A stretch of DNA of 25,712 bases, taken from IMG/VR virus record IMGVR_UViG_3300042564_002147, positions 1 to 25,712 of that record; one strand, written 5' to 3'. The notes under the pieces were generated by a model, which saw nothing but the letters and a program-made list of their open reading frames with translations, was not told the origin of the DNA and did not search any database. The DNA is from a virus. Position 1 is the stretch's first letter; each line of letters starts with the position of its first letter. The position numbers and the translations under genes were made by a program. Shown one piece after another: positions 10,635-15,304 of this stretch.

Positions 10635-11582
10635 ATGGCACATATGATTGAAATGATTGACGGTCAGGCTTCGATGGCTTGGGCAGGTGACCTTCCTTGG
10701 CACGGTCTTGGCACGAAGGTCTCGAATGACCTGACTCCTGACCAGATGCTCAAGGCTGCAAACCTTGACTGGAAGGTTACTCCGGTTCCTGCATTTGCTA
10801 CGATTGACGGCAAGCAGGTCGACATCGGTCGTTCGGCTCTGGTCCGTGACCGTGACAATAGCGTACTTGATGTCATCACGAATGACTGGGTACCTAATCA
10901 GAACTCTGATGCTTTCGAGTTCTTCAACGACTTCATCGCTGCTGGTGAAATGGAAATGCACACTGCCGGTTCACTTCGTGACGGCCAGATTGTATGGGCT
11001 CTGGCTAAGATCAAGGATTCCTTTGAACTCTTCAAAGGCGATCAGGTTGATTCCTACCTGCTCTTCACGAACCCTCATAAGTATGGTTCGTCAATCGATG
11101 TTCGGTTCACTCCGATCCGCGTTGTGTGCAACAACACACTGACTCTGTCGCTCTCGCAGAACTCCAGTCAGGTTGTCAAGGTATCTCACCGCAACCAGTT
11201 CGACGGTGATGCTGTCAAGGAAACTCTTGGCATCGCCAAAGAAAAGCTCCAGTCCTACAAGGAAATGGCAGCTTACCTCGGTTCGAAGCGTTTCAACGAT
11301 GAGAACGTTGTTGATTACTTCAAGCGTGTCTTCCCTGTGTCTGGTGCCAAGAAGGAAATCAGCAAGAATGCTGAGATCGCTCTCAACATCATCGACCAAC
11401 AGCCTGGTGCAGAGTATGCCGAAGGTACCTGGTGGCAGGCATTCAACGCCGTCACCTTCATGACTGACCACGTCATCGGCCGCAGCGCTGATACGCGCCT
11501 CCAGTCAGCCTGGTACGGCTACAACAAGGGTCTCAAGACTCGTGCATTGGAAACCGCTGTTGAGTTTGCAGACGCAGCATGA
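10635..11582 (+). CDS. DUF932 / phage-plasmid-like protein
   Basis: A 315-residue protein matching the DUF932 family, often annotated phage/plasmid-like protein (TIGR03299 type). Typical pieces are WHGLGTKV at residues 22-29, DYFKRVFPV, VRFTPIRVVCNNTLTLSL near residues 155-173, and a C-terminal TWWQAFNAVTFMTDH with GYNKGLKTRALETA. The molecular function is unknown. AAGGA lies upstream of the ATG. The base composition is higher in G and C than the small genes before it. The stop overlaps the next start (ATGA). Confidence 0.85.
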   Translation: MAHMIEMIDGQASMAWAGDLPWHGLGTKVSNDLTPDQMLKAANLDWKVTPVPAFATIDGKQVDIGRSALVRDRDNSVLDVITNDWVPNQNSDAFEFFNDFIAAGEMEMHTAGSLRDGQIVWALAKIKDSFELFKGDQVDSYLLFTNPHKYGSSIDVRFTPIRVVCNNTLTLSLSQNSSQVVKVSHRNQFDGDAVKETLGIAKEKLQSYKEMAAYLGSKRFNDENVVDYFKRVFPVSGAKKEISKNAEIALNIIDQQPGAEYAEGTWWQAFNAVTFMTDHVIGRSADTRLQSAWYGYNKGLKTRALETAVEFADAA

Positions 11583-11806
11583 TCGTAACGTATCTGCCAT
11601 GGCTCATGTCGTGTGTCACCATATGGATGACGTTGCTCGCAGGCAATAACAACCAGTCTGCATGGCTGGTTGGCCTCGGCAATCAAGTCCTGTGGGTGAC
11701 ATGGATTATTGCTAGCCAAACTTGGGGATTGATTCCGATGAGCATTGCACTTGCTATCGTCTATGCTCGCAATCATTTTAAATGGAATACAGTAGAGGAG
11801 AAGTAA
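11579..11806 (+). CDS. Small membrane protein, unknown function
   Basis: A 75-residue protein with three hydrophobic segments, about residues 3-20, 27-45 and 50-64, separated by AGNNNQ and QTWG turns, and a charged tail (RNHFKWNTVEEK). The pattern recalls small phage membrane proteins with a GNNxxxxWxxGLxNQxLW signature, which loosely resembles PnuC-like half proteins; this is not a firm assignment. It overlaps the DUF932 stop as ATGA and is followed two bases later by another membrane protein. Confidence 0.6.
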   Translation: MIVTYLPWLMSCVTIWMTLLAGNNNQSAWLVGLGNQVLWVTWIIASQTWGLIPMSIALAIVYARNHFKWNTVEEK

Positions 11807-11807
11807 T

Positions 11808-12050
11808 ATGTTTTGGTTATGGTTAATTTTTGCTCTTTTGTTTATTGCAATTGGTTCGTATGTAAGCGGTAGACTCGATATCGATGTCGATGAAAAGCTT
11901 GGTATATTTTGGATGGTCTTTATAGGATCTCTGCTGTGGCCGCTCGTACTCACTGCCGTAATTATCATCGGACCGTTCTTTGGTCTCTTCTGGCTCGGTG
12001 ATCGCAAGCGTGAGAAGCTCAAGAAGGAAAAATCTGCCGAGAATAAATAA
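11808..12050 (+). CDS. Small membrane protein, unknown function
   Basis: An 80-residue protein with two hydrophobic segments, residues 1-20 (FWLWLIFALLFIAIGSYV) and about 32-62, and a basic cytoplasmic tail GDRKREKLKKEK. AGGAG lies just before the ATG. It was probably acquired with the envelope-targeted genes that follow. Confidence 0.6.
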   Translation: MFWLWLIFALLFIAIGSYVSGRLDIDVDEKLGIFWMVFIGSLLWPLVLTAVIIIGPFFGLFWLGDRKREKLKKEKSAENK

Positions 12051-12054
12051 GTTT

Positions 12055-12237
12055 ATGGTAGAAGAAAACGGTACTTACTTTGTAGGAATGTCTTTAGAAA
12101 CTGAGGATGATGAAATCATCTTTCCGGTAAGATTTCATACAAAGAATTATAAAGAAGCTCTTATATTAACTCGCTGCATCACATCAGGTGATCCGCGCAA
12201 GCGAGTCATGTTTGCTGATATTGGTGGGGAGTTCTAA
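12055..12237 (+). CDS. Small protein, unknown function
   Basis: A 60-residue protein, MVEENGTYFVGMSLETEDDE at the start, with a beta-rich first half and a helix KNYKEALILTRCI. The chosen ATG at 12055 lies five bases after the upstream stop. A longer frame opens at 11980 but overlaps the membrane-protein gene. No family recognised and no strong ribosome-binding site. Confidence 0.5.
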   Translation: MVEENGTYFVGMSLETEDDEIIFPVRFHTKNYKEALILTRCITSGDPRKRVMFADIGGEF

Positions 12238-12238
12238 T

Positions 12239-12565
12239 ATGAAAAAGTTTATTGCATCTGCTCTTGTTACTAGCATGTTGATTACAACACCGGCTTTTGC
12301 CGAACACCGCAAACGAGATAGAGATCACAGTCAACAGGAACGCCGTAAAAGCGGTTGTGGTTGGCTTTGTGGTGCAATCATTGGCGGTGTTGTTGTAGGT
12401 GTTCTTTCCTCTGAGCGCAAAGAACGCAGAGAACAAGATCAAGAGTATGACAACCGTTACTATCCACCAGATCACCGTATCGACAAACGATATTGTGTTC
12501 GCGAACAAATTGTAGAATGGCATCGTGGTGAGCGATACGTCTACTGGCAAACTACCTGTAATTAA
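12239..12565 (+). CDS. Secreted basic protein with signal peptide
   Basis: A 108-residue precursor. Residues 1-21 form a classical signal peptide (MKKFIASALVTSMLITTPAFA) with an AFA cleavage site. The mature part starts with a highly charged EHRKRDRDHSQQERRK, has a glycine-rich hydrophobic stretch (CGAIIGGVVVGVLS, residues about 44-57), another charged stretch and a cysteine-containing C-terminus (RYCVREQIVEW...YWQTTCN). It resembles short alphaproteobacterial exported proteins more than phage core proteins. ATG 12239 has GGGGAG upstream. Its first ten codons resemble those of the next gene, also exported. Confidence 0.7.
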   Translation: MKKFIASALVTSMLITTPAFAEHRKRDRDHSQQERRKSGCGWLCGAIIGGVVVGVLSSERKERREQDQEYDNRYYPPDHRIDKRYCVREQIVEWHRGERYVYWQTTCN

Positions 12566-12574
12566 GGAAAACAT

Positions 12575-13009
12575 ATGAAGAATTTTATTGCATTAGCACT
12601 CGTAATGCTGGCTACTCCAGCTATTGCTCAGAAGACACCAGTCGGTGTTACCTATGACACGACTATTGTCCGTGCCGTTGACGGTGATACAATTGTTGTT
12701 GCTGCACCATATCTTCCAGCTCCGCTAAAGCCTGAACTTGGTGTTAGAATCTTTGGTGTTGACACTCCAGAAAAAGGTTTCCGTGGCAAGTGTGAGAGTG
12801 AGAAGGTCCGTGGTGAACAGGCTTCTGTCTTTACAAAAGACGTAATTAAGGCTACGAAAAAGCATCAGGTTGTTCTATATGATTGGGACAAGTTTGGTGG
12901 CCGTGTTCTTGGAGATATCCTTCTTGACGGCATGAGCCTTCGTGCTTTGCTCATCAAGAATGGTTTTGCACGTGAATACTTTGGTGATGCAAAACAATCT
13001 TGGTGCTAA
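12575..13009 (+). CDS. Secreted thermonuclease-like nuclease (SNase family)
   Basis: A 144-residue precursor with signal peptide MKNFIALALVMLATPAIA, then an SNase-type OB-fold domain. Catalytic positions of staphylococcal nuclease can be followed: Asp36 and Asp38 in AVDGDT, Arg58 in VRIFG, Asp63 and Glu66 in VDTPE, and Arg110 in DKFGGRVLG. The family cleaves DNA and RNA with calcium. The signal peptide places it in the periplasm or outside the cell, which is odd for a nuclease of phage replication. Roles in superinfection exclusion or nucleotide scavenging are inference. AAGGA precedes the ATG; the promoter for the tmRNA follows the stop. Confidence 0.88.
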   Translation: MKNFIALALVMLATPAIAQKTPVGVTYDTTIVRAVDGDTIVVAAPYLPAPLKPELGVRIFGVDTPEKGFRGKCESEKVRGEQASVFTKDVIKATKKHQVVLYDWDKFGGRVLGDILLDGMSLRALLIKNGFAREYFGDAKQSWC

Positions 13010-13017
13010 AATAGTTG

Positions 13018-13046
13018 TGTACAATTAAGTCAAAACATTGTATATA
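13018..13046 (+). promoter_or_regulatory. Repeated phage promoter, copy 7, upstream of tmRNA
   Basis: TGTACA at 13018-13023, a 17-base spacer with CAAAAC, then TATATA at 13041-13046, led by AAAATAGTTG as in copies 2 and 4. The predicted start, about 13053, coincides with the 5' end of the tmRNA precursor judged from base pairing. Confidence 0.7.
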
Positions 13047-13054
13047 TAGTATAT

Positions 13055-13117
13055 CAGTTGTTGACAATCAACAATAAAGGCGGAAAGACCGGGGTTCGAC
13101 TCCCCGCACCTCCACCA
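13055..13117 (+). ncRNA. tmRNA acceptor piece
   Basis: The mature 3' half: a helix segment, then GAC, a five-pair T stem with loop TTCGACT, the acceptor 3' strand CACCTCC, discriminator A and CCA at 13115-13117. The layout GAC-stem-TTCRACT-stem-CASCTCC-ACCA is the same as at the 3' end of E. coli tmRNA. The exact 5' end is estimated from the promoter and from pairing with 13447-13453. Confidence 0.88.
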
Positions 13118-13239
13118 TAGATACTCTGGGCCGAATACACACCGGCTAATAAAAGTTTCGATTACTATTGCTGAAATCCGGGCAATAGAATAGGCAGAGT
13201 TTGGAATCGCAGGTACTCTCTAGCCAGAGTGTCTATGAT
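13118..13239 (+). other. tmRNA internal spacer removed on processing
   Basis: The 122 bases between the CCA and the coding-piece 5' end. TAGATACTCTGG at 13118-13129 pairs with CCAGAGTGTCTA at 13224-13235 (one G-T pair), extending the acceptor helix into a hairpin. This is the expected shape of the pre-tmRNA before the 5' end of the coding piece and the CCA end are freed. Confidence 0.8.
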
Positions 13240-13453
13240 GGGGGTGACCATGGAATTCGATTTTCGTGTAATAGGGCGGTTCGAGACTGATTGCTTGGCA
13301 AAGTGCCATTAAACATAAATGCTAACGATAACGATAGCTTTGCAGATATCCGCCTAGCGGCATGATCTACACGGGTATGGCTCCACCTTGGAACAGAACG
13401 GGCCAATTTGCTACCAGTTGCACTGCCGGTGCTACGGGTTGATATGACAACTG
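13240..13453 (+). ncRNA. tmRNA coding piece
   Basis: Begins with GGGGGTGACCATGGAATTCG (acceptor 5' strand and D-loop-like region), runs through a pseudoknot-sized segment to the resume codon at 13321, and continues past the tag stop into a structured tail including GCAC-TGCCG-GTGC. The 3' end is estimated from the pairing of ACAACTG at 13447-13453 with the precursor start. Confidence 0.85.
13321..13365 (+). other. tmRNA tag reading frame, ANDNDSFADIRLAA
   Basis: GCT at 13321 is the resume codon. The frame reads fourteen residues, ANDNDSFADIRLAA, and ends with TGA at 13363-13365. It is preceded by AAACATAAAT, similar to the resume context of other tmRNAs. ANDN at the start and LAA at the end are standard for alphaproteobacterial tags; the DSFADI middle is longer than in rhizobial tags. 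Confidence 0.9.
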
Positions 13454-13719
13454 GTATAAATATTAGTATGCGGAGGTTGAAATCCTCCATTGACTCTTAC
13501 AAAACTTCAAGTCTTAGATGGCTAGAAAGCGGCATCATCCGGATGCCACCGACGAAAACAACTAATGATTTTGCATTTCCAGTAAGAGGGAAATGGATGG
13601 AAGATACACCTTCGTTATTTCATTTTGTATCTTCTAATAGCATTGATGACGATAAAGGGTTGAGACACTCTGGTAGCTTCGTCTTCATTGTCAAAGTCAT
13701 TTGACAAAAAGAGGATTAA
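13454..13719 (+). other. Unassigned stretch between tmRNA and endolysin
   Basis: No confident gene. It contains a TATAAATA octamer, a hairpin GGAGG-TTGAAAT-CCTCC at about 13471-13487 and a second hairpin GGCATC/GATGCC at about 13528-13545. A reading frame open from ATG 13468 to 13704 (78 codons) has no ribosome-binding site. A shorter version from ATG 13597 (35 codons) has AGAGGG eight bases upstream. The stretch may be the leader of the lysin transcript, a small RNA or a short gene. Confidence 0.4.
13455..13462 (+). promoter_or_regulatory. Possible T4-type late promoter ahead of the endolysin
   Basis: TATAAATA, the T4 late -10 octamer, directly after the inferred tmRNA 3' end. The next clear gene is the endolysin at 13720, a product expected late in infection. 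A single octamer in AT-rich DNA is weak evidence by itself. Confidence 0.45.
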
Positions 13720-14298
13720 ATGAAACTTTTCGAAAATAGAAAAGATTTCCCGTACCTTCGCTGGGCTGAAGGATTCTGTCTTGGACTTGCTCTTGCTACA
13801 ACAGCAGCAGTTGCAATGCCAACCAAGGTTCCTGAAGTCAAGATCATCAAGGTACCTGAAGTCAAGGTAATCGAAAAAGAAAAGATCGTAAACAAGCCAG
13901 TTTATCTGAGCGCATACGACAAAAAACAAATCCAATGCATGGCCGAGAATACATACTTCGAAGCAGGTCATGAACCCTACAAAGGTAGGATTGCGGTCAA
14001 CAATGTTGTGTTGAACCGTGCGAAAGATAAAAGATTCCCTAGCACACCATGTGGAGTTATCAATCAGAGAACTGCGCGCGTATGCCAATTTTCATGGAAA
14101 TGTGAGGGAGGAAAGCGAATCGCCGATATGTCAGCATATCGCAAAGCCAAGCAAATCGCAGAAAACGTTTACATAGGTAACTATGGCGACGTAACTAAAG
14201 GAGCGAAGTTCTACCACGCTGACTACGTAAGTCCGTCATGGGGTAGAGTATTTGATCGCACCACCAAAATCGGTGCACATATTTTTTATAGAGGATGA
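13720..14298 (+). CDS. Endolysin, SleB-type cell-wall hydrolase with N-terminal membrane anchor
   Basis: A 192-residue wall hydrolase. Residues about 15-33 (AEGFCLGLALATTAAVAM) form a membrane or signal-anchor helix. A stalk follows with a short repeat, VPEVKIIK then VPEVKVIE (residues 38-53). The catalytic domain (Hydrolase_2/SleB) starts at residue 66: AENTYFEAGHEPYKGRIAV with the likely catalytic Glu81, VVLNRAKDKRFPSTPCGVI, QFSWKCEG, and AKFYHADYVSPSW near the end. SleB-type enzymes cut glycan strands. The anchor suggests export by the host Sec system, as for signal-anchor-release lysins. GAGGA precedes the ATG. Placement next to gp33 fits late expression. Confidence 0.85.
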   Translation: MKLFENRKDFPYLRWAEGFCLGLALATTAAVAMPTKVPEVKIIKVPEVKVIEKEKIVNKPVYLSAYDKKQIQCMAENTYFEAGHEPYKGRIAVNNVVLNRAKDKRFPSTPCGVINQRTARVCQFSWKCEGGKRIADMSAYRKAKQIAENVYIGNYGDVTKGAKFYHADYVSPSWGRVFDRTTKIGAHIFYRG

Positions 14299-14301
14299 AT
14301 T

Positions 14302-14547
14302 ATGGTGGACGACGTTATCTTTGAGAAAGCCTTGACGACTGAGAAGTTTATCAAGGACATTGAATCTCTTGTTACTAGAGGAAATATAGATTATTTAGAT
14401 GCCGTCGTCCATTATTGTGAGACGAACAACGTTGAGATTGAAGCAGCGGCTATGATTATCCGTAATAACATACGTATCAAGTCGAAGCTTCAATCTGAAT
14501 GTGAGGATCTTAACTTCCTTCCTAAGCGGGCACATCTGCCAATATGA
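14302..14547 (+). CDS. 33: gp33-like late-transcription accessory protein
   Basis: An 81-residue helical protein. The segment NIDYLDAVVHYCETNNVEIE, then AAAMIIRNNIRIKSKLQSEC and NFLP, follows the pattern of T4 gp33 (YLEA, ENSIPE, then a helix with KIQSEA and NLL). T4 gp33 links the sliding clamp and sigma-like gp55 to RNA polymerase at late promoters. It is a little shorter than T4 gp33 (112 residues), lacking the N-terminal extension. Its place just upstream of gp59 and gp32 is the T4 order (33, 59, 32), which strengthens the call. Confidence 0.78.
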   Translation: MVDDVIFEKALTTEKFIKDIESLVTRGNIDYLDAVVHYCETNNVEIEAAAMIIRNNIRIKSKLQSECEDLNFLPKRAHLPI

Positions 14548-14729
14548 GTGAAGATCCATATATGAAAATGGTGGAAACATCATTAAAGTTCGTGGGTGAA
14601 CTTGGTGATCAGGCAGATCAACTTGCGTATGCAATCTATGGATTGCTTGAAGGCAATGGCCCTGAGGAAGCAGCTGCACTGCTTCAAAAATTCGGTTATA
14701 CCGATGAAGATGGATTCTGGACCGAATGA
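14544..14729 (+). CDS. Small acidic protein between gp33 and gp59, unknown function
   Basis: A 61-residue acidic helical protein (MSEDPYMKMVETSLKFVGEL at the start) with LEGNGPEEAAALLQKFGYTDEDG near the end. It overlaps the genes on both sides as ATGA, so it is translationally coupled within the gp33-gp59 unit. T4 has no obvious counterpart in this place. Confidence 0.6.
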   Translation: MSEDPYMKMVETSLKFVGELGDQADQLAYAIYGLLEGNGPEEAAALLQKFGYTDEDGFWTE

Positions 14730-15304
14730 CACCATTTGAGAGCTATAAGACTTTCATGGCAGTCAAAAGTCATTTCACCACATCATACGACTATATCAAG
14801 TACAACGGCAAAGTCAATGCATCTCAACAGTCGTTTGAGACTCGCAAAGATAAGTACCAGTACTACAAACTCTCCAAACATAAAGATCCTTTACAGTACT
14901 TGGTTGCCAACTTTGTTGATGGTGATCTTAAGTGGGTAGGAGATCTATTTAATGATGACTCTGAAAAGGTCTATGCAAGTTGGCTGAAACGCCAACAATC
15001 ACTTACATATATATTTGAGCAAGACCTAAATAAACTGTGTACAAAATTCGATGATAATGTTATAGTAAAAAATGGGCAGCATCCCTACCTTCTTAAACAA
15101 TATCTGCGCCGTGAAATAAGTATCGAGACAATAATCATCCTGAATGATTTGCTCGGCTTCTTCAATCATTGGAATAAAAAGGTTGAAGACGGTGTTCTGT
15201 GGCCTACGATATATAAGAAGTGCATGAAGTACAAGCCTTTCTTCCACTATGATATGTTCAAGTGTAGGAAGATCCTGAAAGATAAATTTATGGGTGATGA
15301 ATGA
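14726..15304 (+). CDS. 59: gp59-like helicase loader
   Basis: A 192-residue helical protein that, in T4, loads the gp41 helicase onto gp32-covered forks. N-terminal PFESYKTFMAVKSHFTTSYD, YIKYNGKV and RKDKYQYYKLSKH align with the T4 gp59 start (KYDVIKYN, KRRDKYFFQKLSEK). VANFVDGDLKWVGDLFND matches the region of VANQDAWIGD in T4. Length is close to T4 gp59 (217). ATGA overlap upstream and downstream. A copy of the repeated promoter lies inside the gene at 15038. Confidence 0.88.
   Translation: MTPFESYKTFMAVKSHFTTSYDYIKYNGKVNASQQSFETRKDKYQYYKLSKHKDPLQYLVANFVDGDLKWVGDLFNDDSEKVYASWLKRQQSLTYIFEQDLNKLCTKFDDNVIVKNGQHPYLLKQYLRREISIETIIILNDLLGFFNHWNKKVEDGVLWPTIYKKCMKYKPFFHYDMFKCRKILKDKFMGDE
15038..15066 (+). 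promoter_or_regulatory. Repeated phage promoter inside gp59, copy 8
   Basis: TGTACA at 15038-15043, a 17-base spacer without the central AAAA, then TATAGT at 15061-15066, with AAACTG before TGTACA as in copies 5 and 6. It could give separate transcription of the methyltransferase and gp32. Being in coding sequence, it is less certain than the intergenic copies. Confidence 0.45.

What the first reader, a model, noticed from the sequence alone, without database searches (positions are those of the whole stretch)
12239..13009. Two exported proteins, one a nuclease, with similar signal peptides
MKKFIASALV and MKNFIALALV start two adjacent genes. A phage rarely needs to send an SNase-type nuclease out of the cytoplasm. 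It could destroy incoming DNA of competing phages in the periplasm, degrade extracellular DNA or salvage nucleotides. The neighbouring basic protein and two small membrane proteins may be its partners.
Basis: partly seen in the sequence, partly recalled or inferred. Interest (0 to 1): 0.58.

Follow-up and report, generated by a model that had tools for sequence, protein, structure and literature searches.

The report
Swappable exported nucleases in T4-like phages
A T4-like water phage carries a DNA-cutting enzyme with an export tag next to a second exported protein, and its relatives keep swapping this enzyme for an unrelated exported nuclease in the same spot, so the phages seem to need a nuclease outside the cytoplasm, perhaps to destroy the DNA of rival phages.

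Summary
Window 12239-12565 and 12575-13009 encode two proteins with Sec-type signal peptides; the second is a staphylococcal-nuclease (SNase) homologue with all catalytic positions. The window belongs to a T4-like phage. The exported basic protein is a true neighbour: SNase follows 8-15 bp later in 76 of 80 relatives. The two small membrane genes are not conserved (11 and 13 of 51 loci).

The main new result is non-orthologous replacement. In two contigs of this lineage the SNase is replaced, right after the same partner gene, by an unrelated exported nuclease (PF01223). At a second site, between DNA polymerase gp43 and uvsX, SNase (36), exported PF01223 nuclease (9) and nothing (17) alternate among 62 loci, down to 99.5% identical polymerases. 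None of 58 records held both families. Selection thus seems to favour an exported non-specific nuclease as such.

What it does is not shown. Best guess: it destroys foreign DNA, mainly of superinfecting phages, in the periplasm (confidence 0.45). Gene placement (the interval of T4 imm; coupling to gp43) and no endonuclease I in 76 sampled alphaproteobacteria fit. A late-type promoter and the neighbouring endolysin also allow a role at lysis; phosphorus scavenging stays open.

The parts
10635..11582 (+). DUF932 protein (PF06067), flanking anchor gene of slot A
   Evidence: used as nuclease-blind anchor
11579..11806 (+). small membrane protein, 75 aa (phrog_2421); not a conserved partner
   Evidence: in 11 of 51 loci
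11808..12050 (+). small membrane protein, 80 aa; not a conserved partner
   Evidence: in 13 of 51 loci
12042..12049 (+). late-promoter-like octamer AATAAATA, one mismatch from TATAAATA, 13 bp before the 60-aa ORF
   Evidence: exact TATAAATA in 20 and one mismatch in 31 of 51 usable relatives, always 10-13 bp before that ORF
12055..12237 (+). 60-aa protein of unknown function, first gene of the conserved trio 60aa-exported protein-nuclease
   Evidence: in 50 of 51 loci
12239..12565 (+). exported basic 108-aa protein: signal peptide (12239-12301), Arg/Asp-rich linkers, Gly-rich hydrophobic segment GCGWLCGAIIGGVVVG, C-terminal hairpin with C86 and C107 at its ends
12575..13009 (+). exported SNase-family nuclease, 144 aa; signal peptide 12575-12628
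13022..13456 (+). permuted tmRNA gene, tag ANDNDSFADIRLAA (Rfam core 13056-13365)
   Evidence: ARAGORN finds a tmRNA in 62 of 69 relatives with at least 500 bp beyond SNase
13455..13462 (+). late promoter core TATAAATA
   Evidence: in 47 of 48 relatives between SNase and endolysin, one copy about 252-279 bp before the endolysin
13463..13657 (+). conserved structured leader RNA candidate before the endolysin gene
   Evidence: no Rfam match
13720..14298 (+). cell wall hydrolase, probable endolysin (PF07486)
14302..14547 (+). T4-type late transcription coactivator (PF16805)
14726..15304 (+). gp59 helicase loader, marks the phage as T4-like

Best explanation
The pair is a phage-encoded exported nuclease with an exported partner encoded just before it. 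The SNase is carried by Sec to the periplasm (strongly supported by sequence; not shown by experiment). There it cuts DNA, and probably RNA, without sequence specificity (inferred from the family and the intact catalytic residues). Selection acts on the activity 'a non-specific nuclease outside the cytoplasm' rather than on this one protein, because unrelated exported nucleases repeatedly take its place (shown by comparison). The most likely benefit is that nucleic acid entering the envelope of an already infected cell, above all the DNA of secondarily adsorbing phages, is destroyed, while the resident phage's replicating DNA is safe in the cytoplasm (inferred). In T4 the exclusion protein Imm leaves such DNA in the periplasm; I propose that these phages supply the degrading enzyme themselves. 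The 108-aa protein may hold the nuclease or its substrate at the envelope (guess); it is not needed at the second site.
For: Export: signal rule 83/83, 39/39, 80/80 versus 30/835 controls; exactly two cysteines in the mature SNase in 82/82 and an even number in 39/39 partner proteins. Catalysis: D36, D38, R58, D63, E66 and R110 are invariant in 23 aligned sequences and align with solved SNases. Coupling with the partner: SNase 8-15 bp downstream in 76 of 80. Replacement at slot A: PF01223 nuclease with signal peptide right after the partner gene in two contigs (L135, the same contig as L211, and L212). Replacement at slot B (gp43-uvsX): SNase 36, NS 9, none 17 of 62; start codon overlaps the gp43 stop as ATGA in 37 of 39 SNase and 7 of 10 NS loci; polymerases 99.5% identical carry different nucleases; on a quick tree at least 10 state changes are needed. 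Mutual exclusion: PF01223 and PF00565 together in 0 of 42 records, and in 0 of 19 in a second set of which 3 repeat. Context: T4 keeps imm and imm.1 between 43 and uvsX, and its record says Imm leaves superinfecting DNA in the periplasm to be degraded; endonuclease I family above cut-off in 0 of 76 sampled alphaproteobacteria. Precedent: Campylobacter prophage DNases block natural transformation (PMC3995785, passages).
Against: No experiment. At slot A the trio sits behind a late-type promoter and next to the endolysin, whereas the T4 exclusion protein Spackle is an early product (PMC7677548, passages). No Imm family member was found in 42 records, so why superinfecting DNA would be exposed in the periplasm is open. 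Some relatives do without: 17 of 62 have an empty gp43-uvsX site; L346 has neither nuclease at slot A; named relative C48C1 has none in its slot and is in neither tblastn list. In L392 (163 kb) the SNase next to the endolysin has no signal peptide, so export is not universal in the wider group. L099 has a cytosolic-looking phosphoesterase in place of the SNase. The host is unknown, so the missing endonuclease I may not apply.
Confidence: 0.45

Rival explanations
1. Salvage: the exported nuclease breaks down extracellular or periplasmic DNA and RNA to supply phosphate and nucleosides for phage DNA synthesis in nutrient-poor water, as an auxiliary metabolic gene.
For: Translational coupling to gp43 at slot B; ribonucleotide reductase genes lie near SNase in other phages (L080 small subunit; Rhizobium phage RHph_TM21B). 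Both nuclease families are sugar-non-specific (recalled), which suits salvage.
Against: No exported nucleotidase, phosphatase or nucleoside uptake gene was seen to travel with it among the few neighbouring genes that I annotated; the conserved partner has no known family. Large DNA does not cross an intact outer membrane (established knowledge).
Confidence: 0.22
2. Lysis aid: the nuclease accumulates in the periplasm late, is set free together with the endolysin and cuts released chromosomal and unpackaged DNA, so that virions spread and adsorb better.
For: Slot A lies just before the endolysin, with a late-type promoter ahead of the trio (51 of 51 usable loci within one mismatch) and T4 late-promoter cores downstream in 47 of 48. 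A cell wall hydrolase is next to SNase in other settings too (L037 and L043; L488).
Against: At slot B the nucleases sit in the replication operon and overlap gp43. Among nuclease loci mostly outside SNase slot A an exact late core lies within 60 bp upstream in only 1 of 51 NS and 1 of 30 SNase unique loci. T4-like phages usually degrade the host chromosome in the cytoplasm already (recalled).
Confidence: 0.22
3. Lysis timing: the nuclease removes periplasmic DNA, a suspected signal for T4-type lysis inhibition, and so prevents or ends lysis delay after secondary adsorption.
For: A review proposes periplasmic DNA of secondary phages as a possible lysis-inhibition signal (PMC6832632, passages); slot A is beside the endolysin.
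Against: No r genes or antiholin were looked for in these phages; lysis inhibition is known for T-even phages and N4 (N4: abstract start), not for this group.
Confidence: 0.07
4. Neutral hitchhiker or chance: genes of bacterial origin that happen to sit in variable sites.
For: Bacterial relatives exist at about 40% identity; such intervals are often variable in T4-like phages (recalled).
Against: Reading frame, catalytic residues and signal peptide are kept in the relatives examined; 50 of 51 loci keep a nuclease; repeated replacement by another nuclease family.
Confidence: 0.04

Closest known systems
Campylobacter jejuni prophage and element DNases CJIE1, CJIE2, CJIE4 (CJE1441 nucA)
   Same: Exported or periplasmic non-specific nuclease encoded by a phage element; CJE1441 is annotated as a DNA/RNA non-specific endonuclease, the family that replaces SNase here; such DNases inhibit natural transformation (PMC3995785, passages).
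   Different: Temperate phages of Campylobacter, prophage-expressed; in the passages that I read no SNase, no partner protein and no replacement of one family by another.
T4 superinfection exclusion: Imm and Spackle with host endonuclease I
   Same: Phage products acting at the envelope against secondary phages; imm lies in the gp43-uvsX interval where slot B nucleases lie; Spackle is an exported, disulfide-bonded phage protein (PMC7677548, passages).
   Different: Imm and Spackle are not nucleases; the role of host endonuclease I is recalled, not read here; no Imm family member in 42 relatives.
Streptococcus pyogenes prophage extracellular DNase Spd-3
   Same: Phage-encoded extracellular DNase (PMC3629212, abstract).
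   Different: Temperate phage of a Gram-positive host; treated there as a virulence-associated prophage factor.
SNase-like protein of Rhizobium phage RHph_TM21B and relatives
   Same: 43.5% identical, signal-peptide-like N-terminus, replication neighbourhood.
   Different: Next to ribonucleotide reductase; no 108-aa partner and no tmRNA found in the fetched stretch.
Two-piece tmRNA of Methylophilales phage Melnitz
   Same: Permuted tmRNA in a T4-like aquatic phage, upstream of the late transcription coactivator (PMC9004378, passages).
   Different: Melnitz is in neither tblastn list for the two nucleases.

Membership tests
Staphylococcal nuclease family (PF00565) | profile match above the curated cut-off | tested here: met
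   38 bits against 21, E 2.4e-9
Staphylococcal nuclease family (PF00565) | catalytic and Ca-binding positions (D21, R35, D40, E43, R87 in SNase; numbering recalled) | tested here: met
   D38, R58, D63, E66, R110 invariant in 23 sequences and aligned with solved SNases; one extra Gly stands before R110
Staphylococcal nuclease family (PF00565) | nuclease activity | not testable with these tools
   needs an assay
Sec-exported proteins | n-region, hydrophobic h-region, A-x-A type cleavage site | tested here: met
   rule-based test with controls; kept through sequence divergence
DNA/RNA non-specific endonuclease (PF01223), the replacement at slots A and B | profile match above cut-off and D-[RK]-G-H motif | tested here: met
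   113-122 bits against 23 for three L135-type members; motif in printed sequences; the slot B subfamilies were recognised by tblastn similarity and motif only
T4 Imm superinfection immunity (PF14373) | Imm profile match in the phage | tested here: not met
   0 of 42 records, T4 as positive control
Superinfection exclusion system | loss of the gene lets secondary phages through | not testable with these tools
   needs infection experiments
Permuted (two-piece) tmRNA, RF04321 | covariance model above gathering score | tested here: met
   90.4 bits against 47; ARAGORN tmRNA* with tag
Known Pfam family for the 108-aa protein | profile match above cut-off | tested here: not met
   best E among 21 members 0.0071; the window's own best hit is 13 bits against a cut-off of 21

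The most novel reading that the evidence does not exclude
A large group of uncultivated T4-like phages maintains a self-made 'nuclease moat' in the envelope of the infected cell: an exported non-specific nuclease, taken again and again from unrelated enzyme families and slotted either into the replication operon at the interval of T4 imm or before the tmRNA-endolysin genes, that destroys the DNA of rival phages arriving later and may also erase the periplasmic DNA signal that would delay lysis.
Probability: 0.4. Interest if true: 0.8.

Novelty: new variant of a known kind. Interest (0 to 1): 0.62.

Why it matters
Phage-encoded exported nucleases are known from prophages, but repeated replacement of one exported nuclease by an unrelated one, at two fixed sites in T4-like aquatic phages, indicates that the exported activity itself is selected. 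It gives a testable handle on how virulent phages of uncultivated bacteria compete inside one cell, and it offers a natural experiment, since near-identical phages differ in nuclease type.

Tried and rejected
Shared origin of the two signal peptides (recombination within the pair): rejected, since within-locus similarity equals between-locus similarity. Small membrane proteins as partners: rejected. Late expression as a general rule: holds at slot A only. T4 Imm homologue elsewhere in the phage: none in 42 records. Structure of the 108-aa protein: low confidence, mean pLDDT 54, only the C-terminal hairpin 86-107 is reliable, so no fold search was made. Resemblance of that protein to alphaproteobacterial 17-kDa surface antigens was recalled and not borne out by Pfam. 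Host by tmRNA similarity: in 142 alphaproteobacterial genomes only two matches, of 28-29 bases; host not established. A sigma-70 scan found no more promoter-like sites than shuffles. Paper searches listed no paper whose title or shown abstract describes exported nucleases in T4-like phages; only open-licence papers are held, only the top rows were seen, and one search returned none. Slot A promoter count: L156 was dropped, since its upstream stretch was cut wrongly by my script, leaving 51 of 52 rows. The polymerase tree is the quick one; the careful search did not finish. (second polymerase scan) and most loci were fetched but not analysed.

Full report
What was claimed and what is there. The finding names two adjacent genes with signal peptides, one a nuclease. 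Both are present: a 108-aa protein at 12239-12565 and a 144-aa protein at 12575-13009, 9 bp apart, both on the + strand. Pfam puts the second in the staphylococcal nuclease family (PF00565, E 2.4e-9, above the gathering score) and PHROGs with phage endonucleases (phrog_452, 3.9e-16). The phage is T4-like: a late transcription coactivator (PF16805) and a gp59 helicase loader lie downstream. The closest named DNA matches, over 4-5% of the query, are Phage C48C1 and the Melnitz phages, both filed under Kyanoviridae. The window is a 25.7-kb virus record.

Export. A scan of viral contigs gave 580 relatives of the SNase, of which the best 80 were kept. With the window's own copy and two named phages this makes 83 SNases. 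All 83, all 39 complete 108-aa relatives and all 80 relatives of the replacement nuclease pass a simple Sec-signal rule, against 30 of 835 other mechanical ORFs. In 21 sequences the signal region is 42% identical on average and the mature part 76%, which is how signal peptides behave. The mature SNase has exactly two cysteines in 82 of 82; the 108-aa protein has four in 38 and two in 1 of 39; the replacement nuclease has two in 66, four in 11 and one in 2 of 79. The likeness of the two signal peptides in the window is not specific to the pair.

Nuclease. D36-G-D-T, R58, D63-T-P-E66 and D105-K-x-G-G-R110 are invariant in 23 aligned sequences, including a Rhizobium phage and a spring-water phage protein at 44-48% identity. 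They align with the active-site segments of solved staphylococcal nucleases (residue roles recalled).

The neighbours. The 108-aa protein is a real companion: of 80 kept relatives (of 90 confirmed), 76 have a SNase start 8-15 bp downstream, one has a SNase with an odd gap, one ends at the contig edge and two have something else there. A nuclease-blind test, anchored on the DUF932 gene upstream, gave 80 loci (of 282 relatives); 51 reach the genes beyond the slot, and of these 50 have the 108-aa protein, 49 a SNase, one the replacement nuclease and one neither. The 60-aa gene is in 50 of 51, but the two small membrane genes are in 11 and 13 of 51. The 108-aa protein matches no Pfam family convincingly, and its model is unreliable apart from a C-terminal hairpin with cysteines 86 and 107 at its ends.

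Replacement at slot A. In L135 the ORF right after the 108-aa gene (9 bp between stop and start) is a 214-aa DNA/RNA non-specific endonuclease (PF01223, E 2e-32) with its own signal peptide. A scan for its relatives gave 99, 80 kept; a second contig, L212, has the same arrangement. The other replacement, L099, is a calcineurin-like phosphoesterase without a signal peptide, and this goes against a strict need for a nuclease.

Replacement at slot B. In another set of T4-like phages the exported SNase lies directly behind DNA polymerase gp43 and before uvsX and a gp41-like helicase. A nuclease-blind scan anchored on that polymerase kept 80 of 598 relatives. Where uvsX is reached (62 loci) the interval holds a SNase in 36, an exported PF01223-like nuclease of other subfamilies in 9, and nothing in 17 (31, 9 and 14 after removing near-identical polymerase ends). 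The nuclease start overlaps the gp43 stop as ATGA in 37 of 39 SNase and 7 of 10 NS loci. Polymerases up to 99.5% identical carry different nucleases, and on a quick maximum-likelihood tree of 46 polymerases at least 10 changes of state are needed. The L135-type nuclease is often found near gp43 too: 62 of 80 of its loci have a gp43 match, some 60 bp downstream in most of those printed. Searched with both family profiles, 25 of 42 records had only SNase, 17 only PF01223 and none both (the records were chosen for having one of them). A further set of 19 records, 3 of them repeated from the first, had 10 with SNase, 1 with PF01223 and none with both. Many records are fragments, which limits the strength of this.

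Results against a simple story. L392, a 163-kb record with an empty slot B, has a SNase beside its endolysin, but this one is short and has no signal peptide. L418 (159 kb) shows neither family; its slot lies at the contig end. Phage C48C1 (156 kb) has other genes and no tmRNA in the slot and is absent from both tblastn lists.

Timing. At slot A an octamer within one mismatch of the T4 late promoter core TATAAATA (consensus recalled, and named in PMC9004378, passages, as TATAAAT) stands 10-13 bp before the 60-aa gene in 51 of 51 usable loci (exact in 20); the genes behind it have none at that level in their own 60 bp upstream (exported protein 0 of 53, SNase 0 of 53, endolysin 0 of 45), whereas the DUF932 gene has one in 24 of 47. 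The window itself has the one-mismatch form. Exact cores occur between SNase and endolysin in 47 of 48 loci, including a copy 30 bp after the SNase stop in 26 (counted from the printed list) and a conserved one about 260 bp before the endolysin. Among nuclease loci mostly outside SNase slot A an exact core within 60 bp upstream is rare (1 of 51 NS and 1 of 30 SNase unique loci), and coupling to gp43 at slot B implies expression with replication genes. The two slots together point to activity from mid-infection to lysis.

Function. T4 has imm and imm.1 in the same gp43-uvsX interval, and its record says that Imm leaves superinfecting DNA in the periplasm to be degraded. The degrading enzyme in E. 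coli is endonuclease I (recalled). That family was above its cut-off in 0 of 76 sampled alphaproteobacteria, with E. coli positive, and in 2 of 10 bacterial genomes or bins that carry a SNase relative. If the hosts are alphaproteobacteria, as the permuted tmRNA suggests but does not prove, such phages would have to bring the enzyme. Campylobacter prophage DNases inhibit natural transformation (PMC3995785, passages), so a phage-borne exported nuclease that destroys incoming DNA has a precedent. Salvage and lysis help remain possible, and a role in lysis timing is worth a test because periplasmic DNA is a suspected lysis-inhibition signal in T4 (PMC6832632, passages).

Just downstream. A permuted tmRNA (90.4 bits to RF04321) follows the SNase, and ARAGORN finds a tmRNA in 62 of 69 relatives with enough sequence. 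Such a tmRNA upstream of the coactivator is known from Melnitz (PMC9004378, passages). Between it and the endolysin lies a conserved leader of about 195 nt with one hairpin whose six pairs all show changes on both sides (columns 79-84 with 108-113, 23 sequences), not in Rfam.

Verdict. The strange and valuable point is the repeated swapping of unrelated exported nucleases at fixed sites.

Noticed in passing
window 13022-13456: Permuted (two-piece) tmRNA gene directly after the SNase, tag ANDNDSFADIRLAA; several tag variants among relatives.
   Followed up: partly
window 13463-13657: Leader RNA candidate between a T4-type late promoter core and the endolysin gene: strongly conserved, one hairpin with compensatory changes in all six pairs, and a possible pseudoknot (CTCTTAC with GTAAGAG in a hairpin loop, nearly invariant, seen by eye). 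No Rfam match.
   Followed up: partly
L002:2864-3207 (Ruegeria phage RpAliso OR257569.1): ARAGORN finds a permuted tmRNA with tag ANENFAPVEMAVAA that is not annotated in the record.
   Followed up: no
L099:2704-3459: Calcineurin-like phosphoesterase in place of the SNase; relatives at 72-77% identity lie about 3.4-3.9 kb upstream of gp43 in L376, L377, L404 and L416.
   Followed up: no
L488:2055-2959: In a 163-kb T4-like record a SNase without signal peptide sits directly beside the cell wall hydrolase, coactivator and gp59 genes (gene names judged by eye from the translations).
   Followed up: partly
L157 and L158: Bacterial bins (Sphingobacteriales, Armatimonadetes MAGs) hold contigs with SNases 75% and 58% identical to the window's; they may be phage contigs binned by mistake.
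   Followed up: no
L060:4958-5662, L074:3699-4217: Fatty acid desaturase and ferritin-like genes near the exported SNase in other phage contigs.
   Followed up: no
L041:2406-2852: The signal region reads LFSC before the usual A-x-A site, so this SNase might be a lipoprotein; lipobox judged by eye.
   Followed up: no
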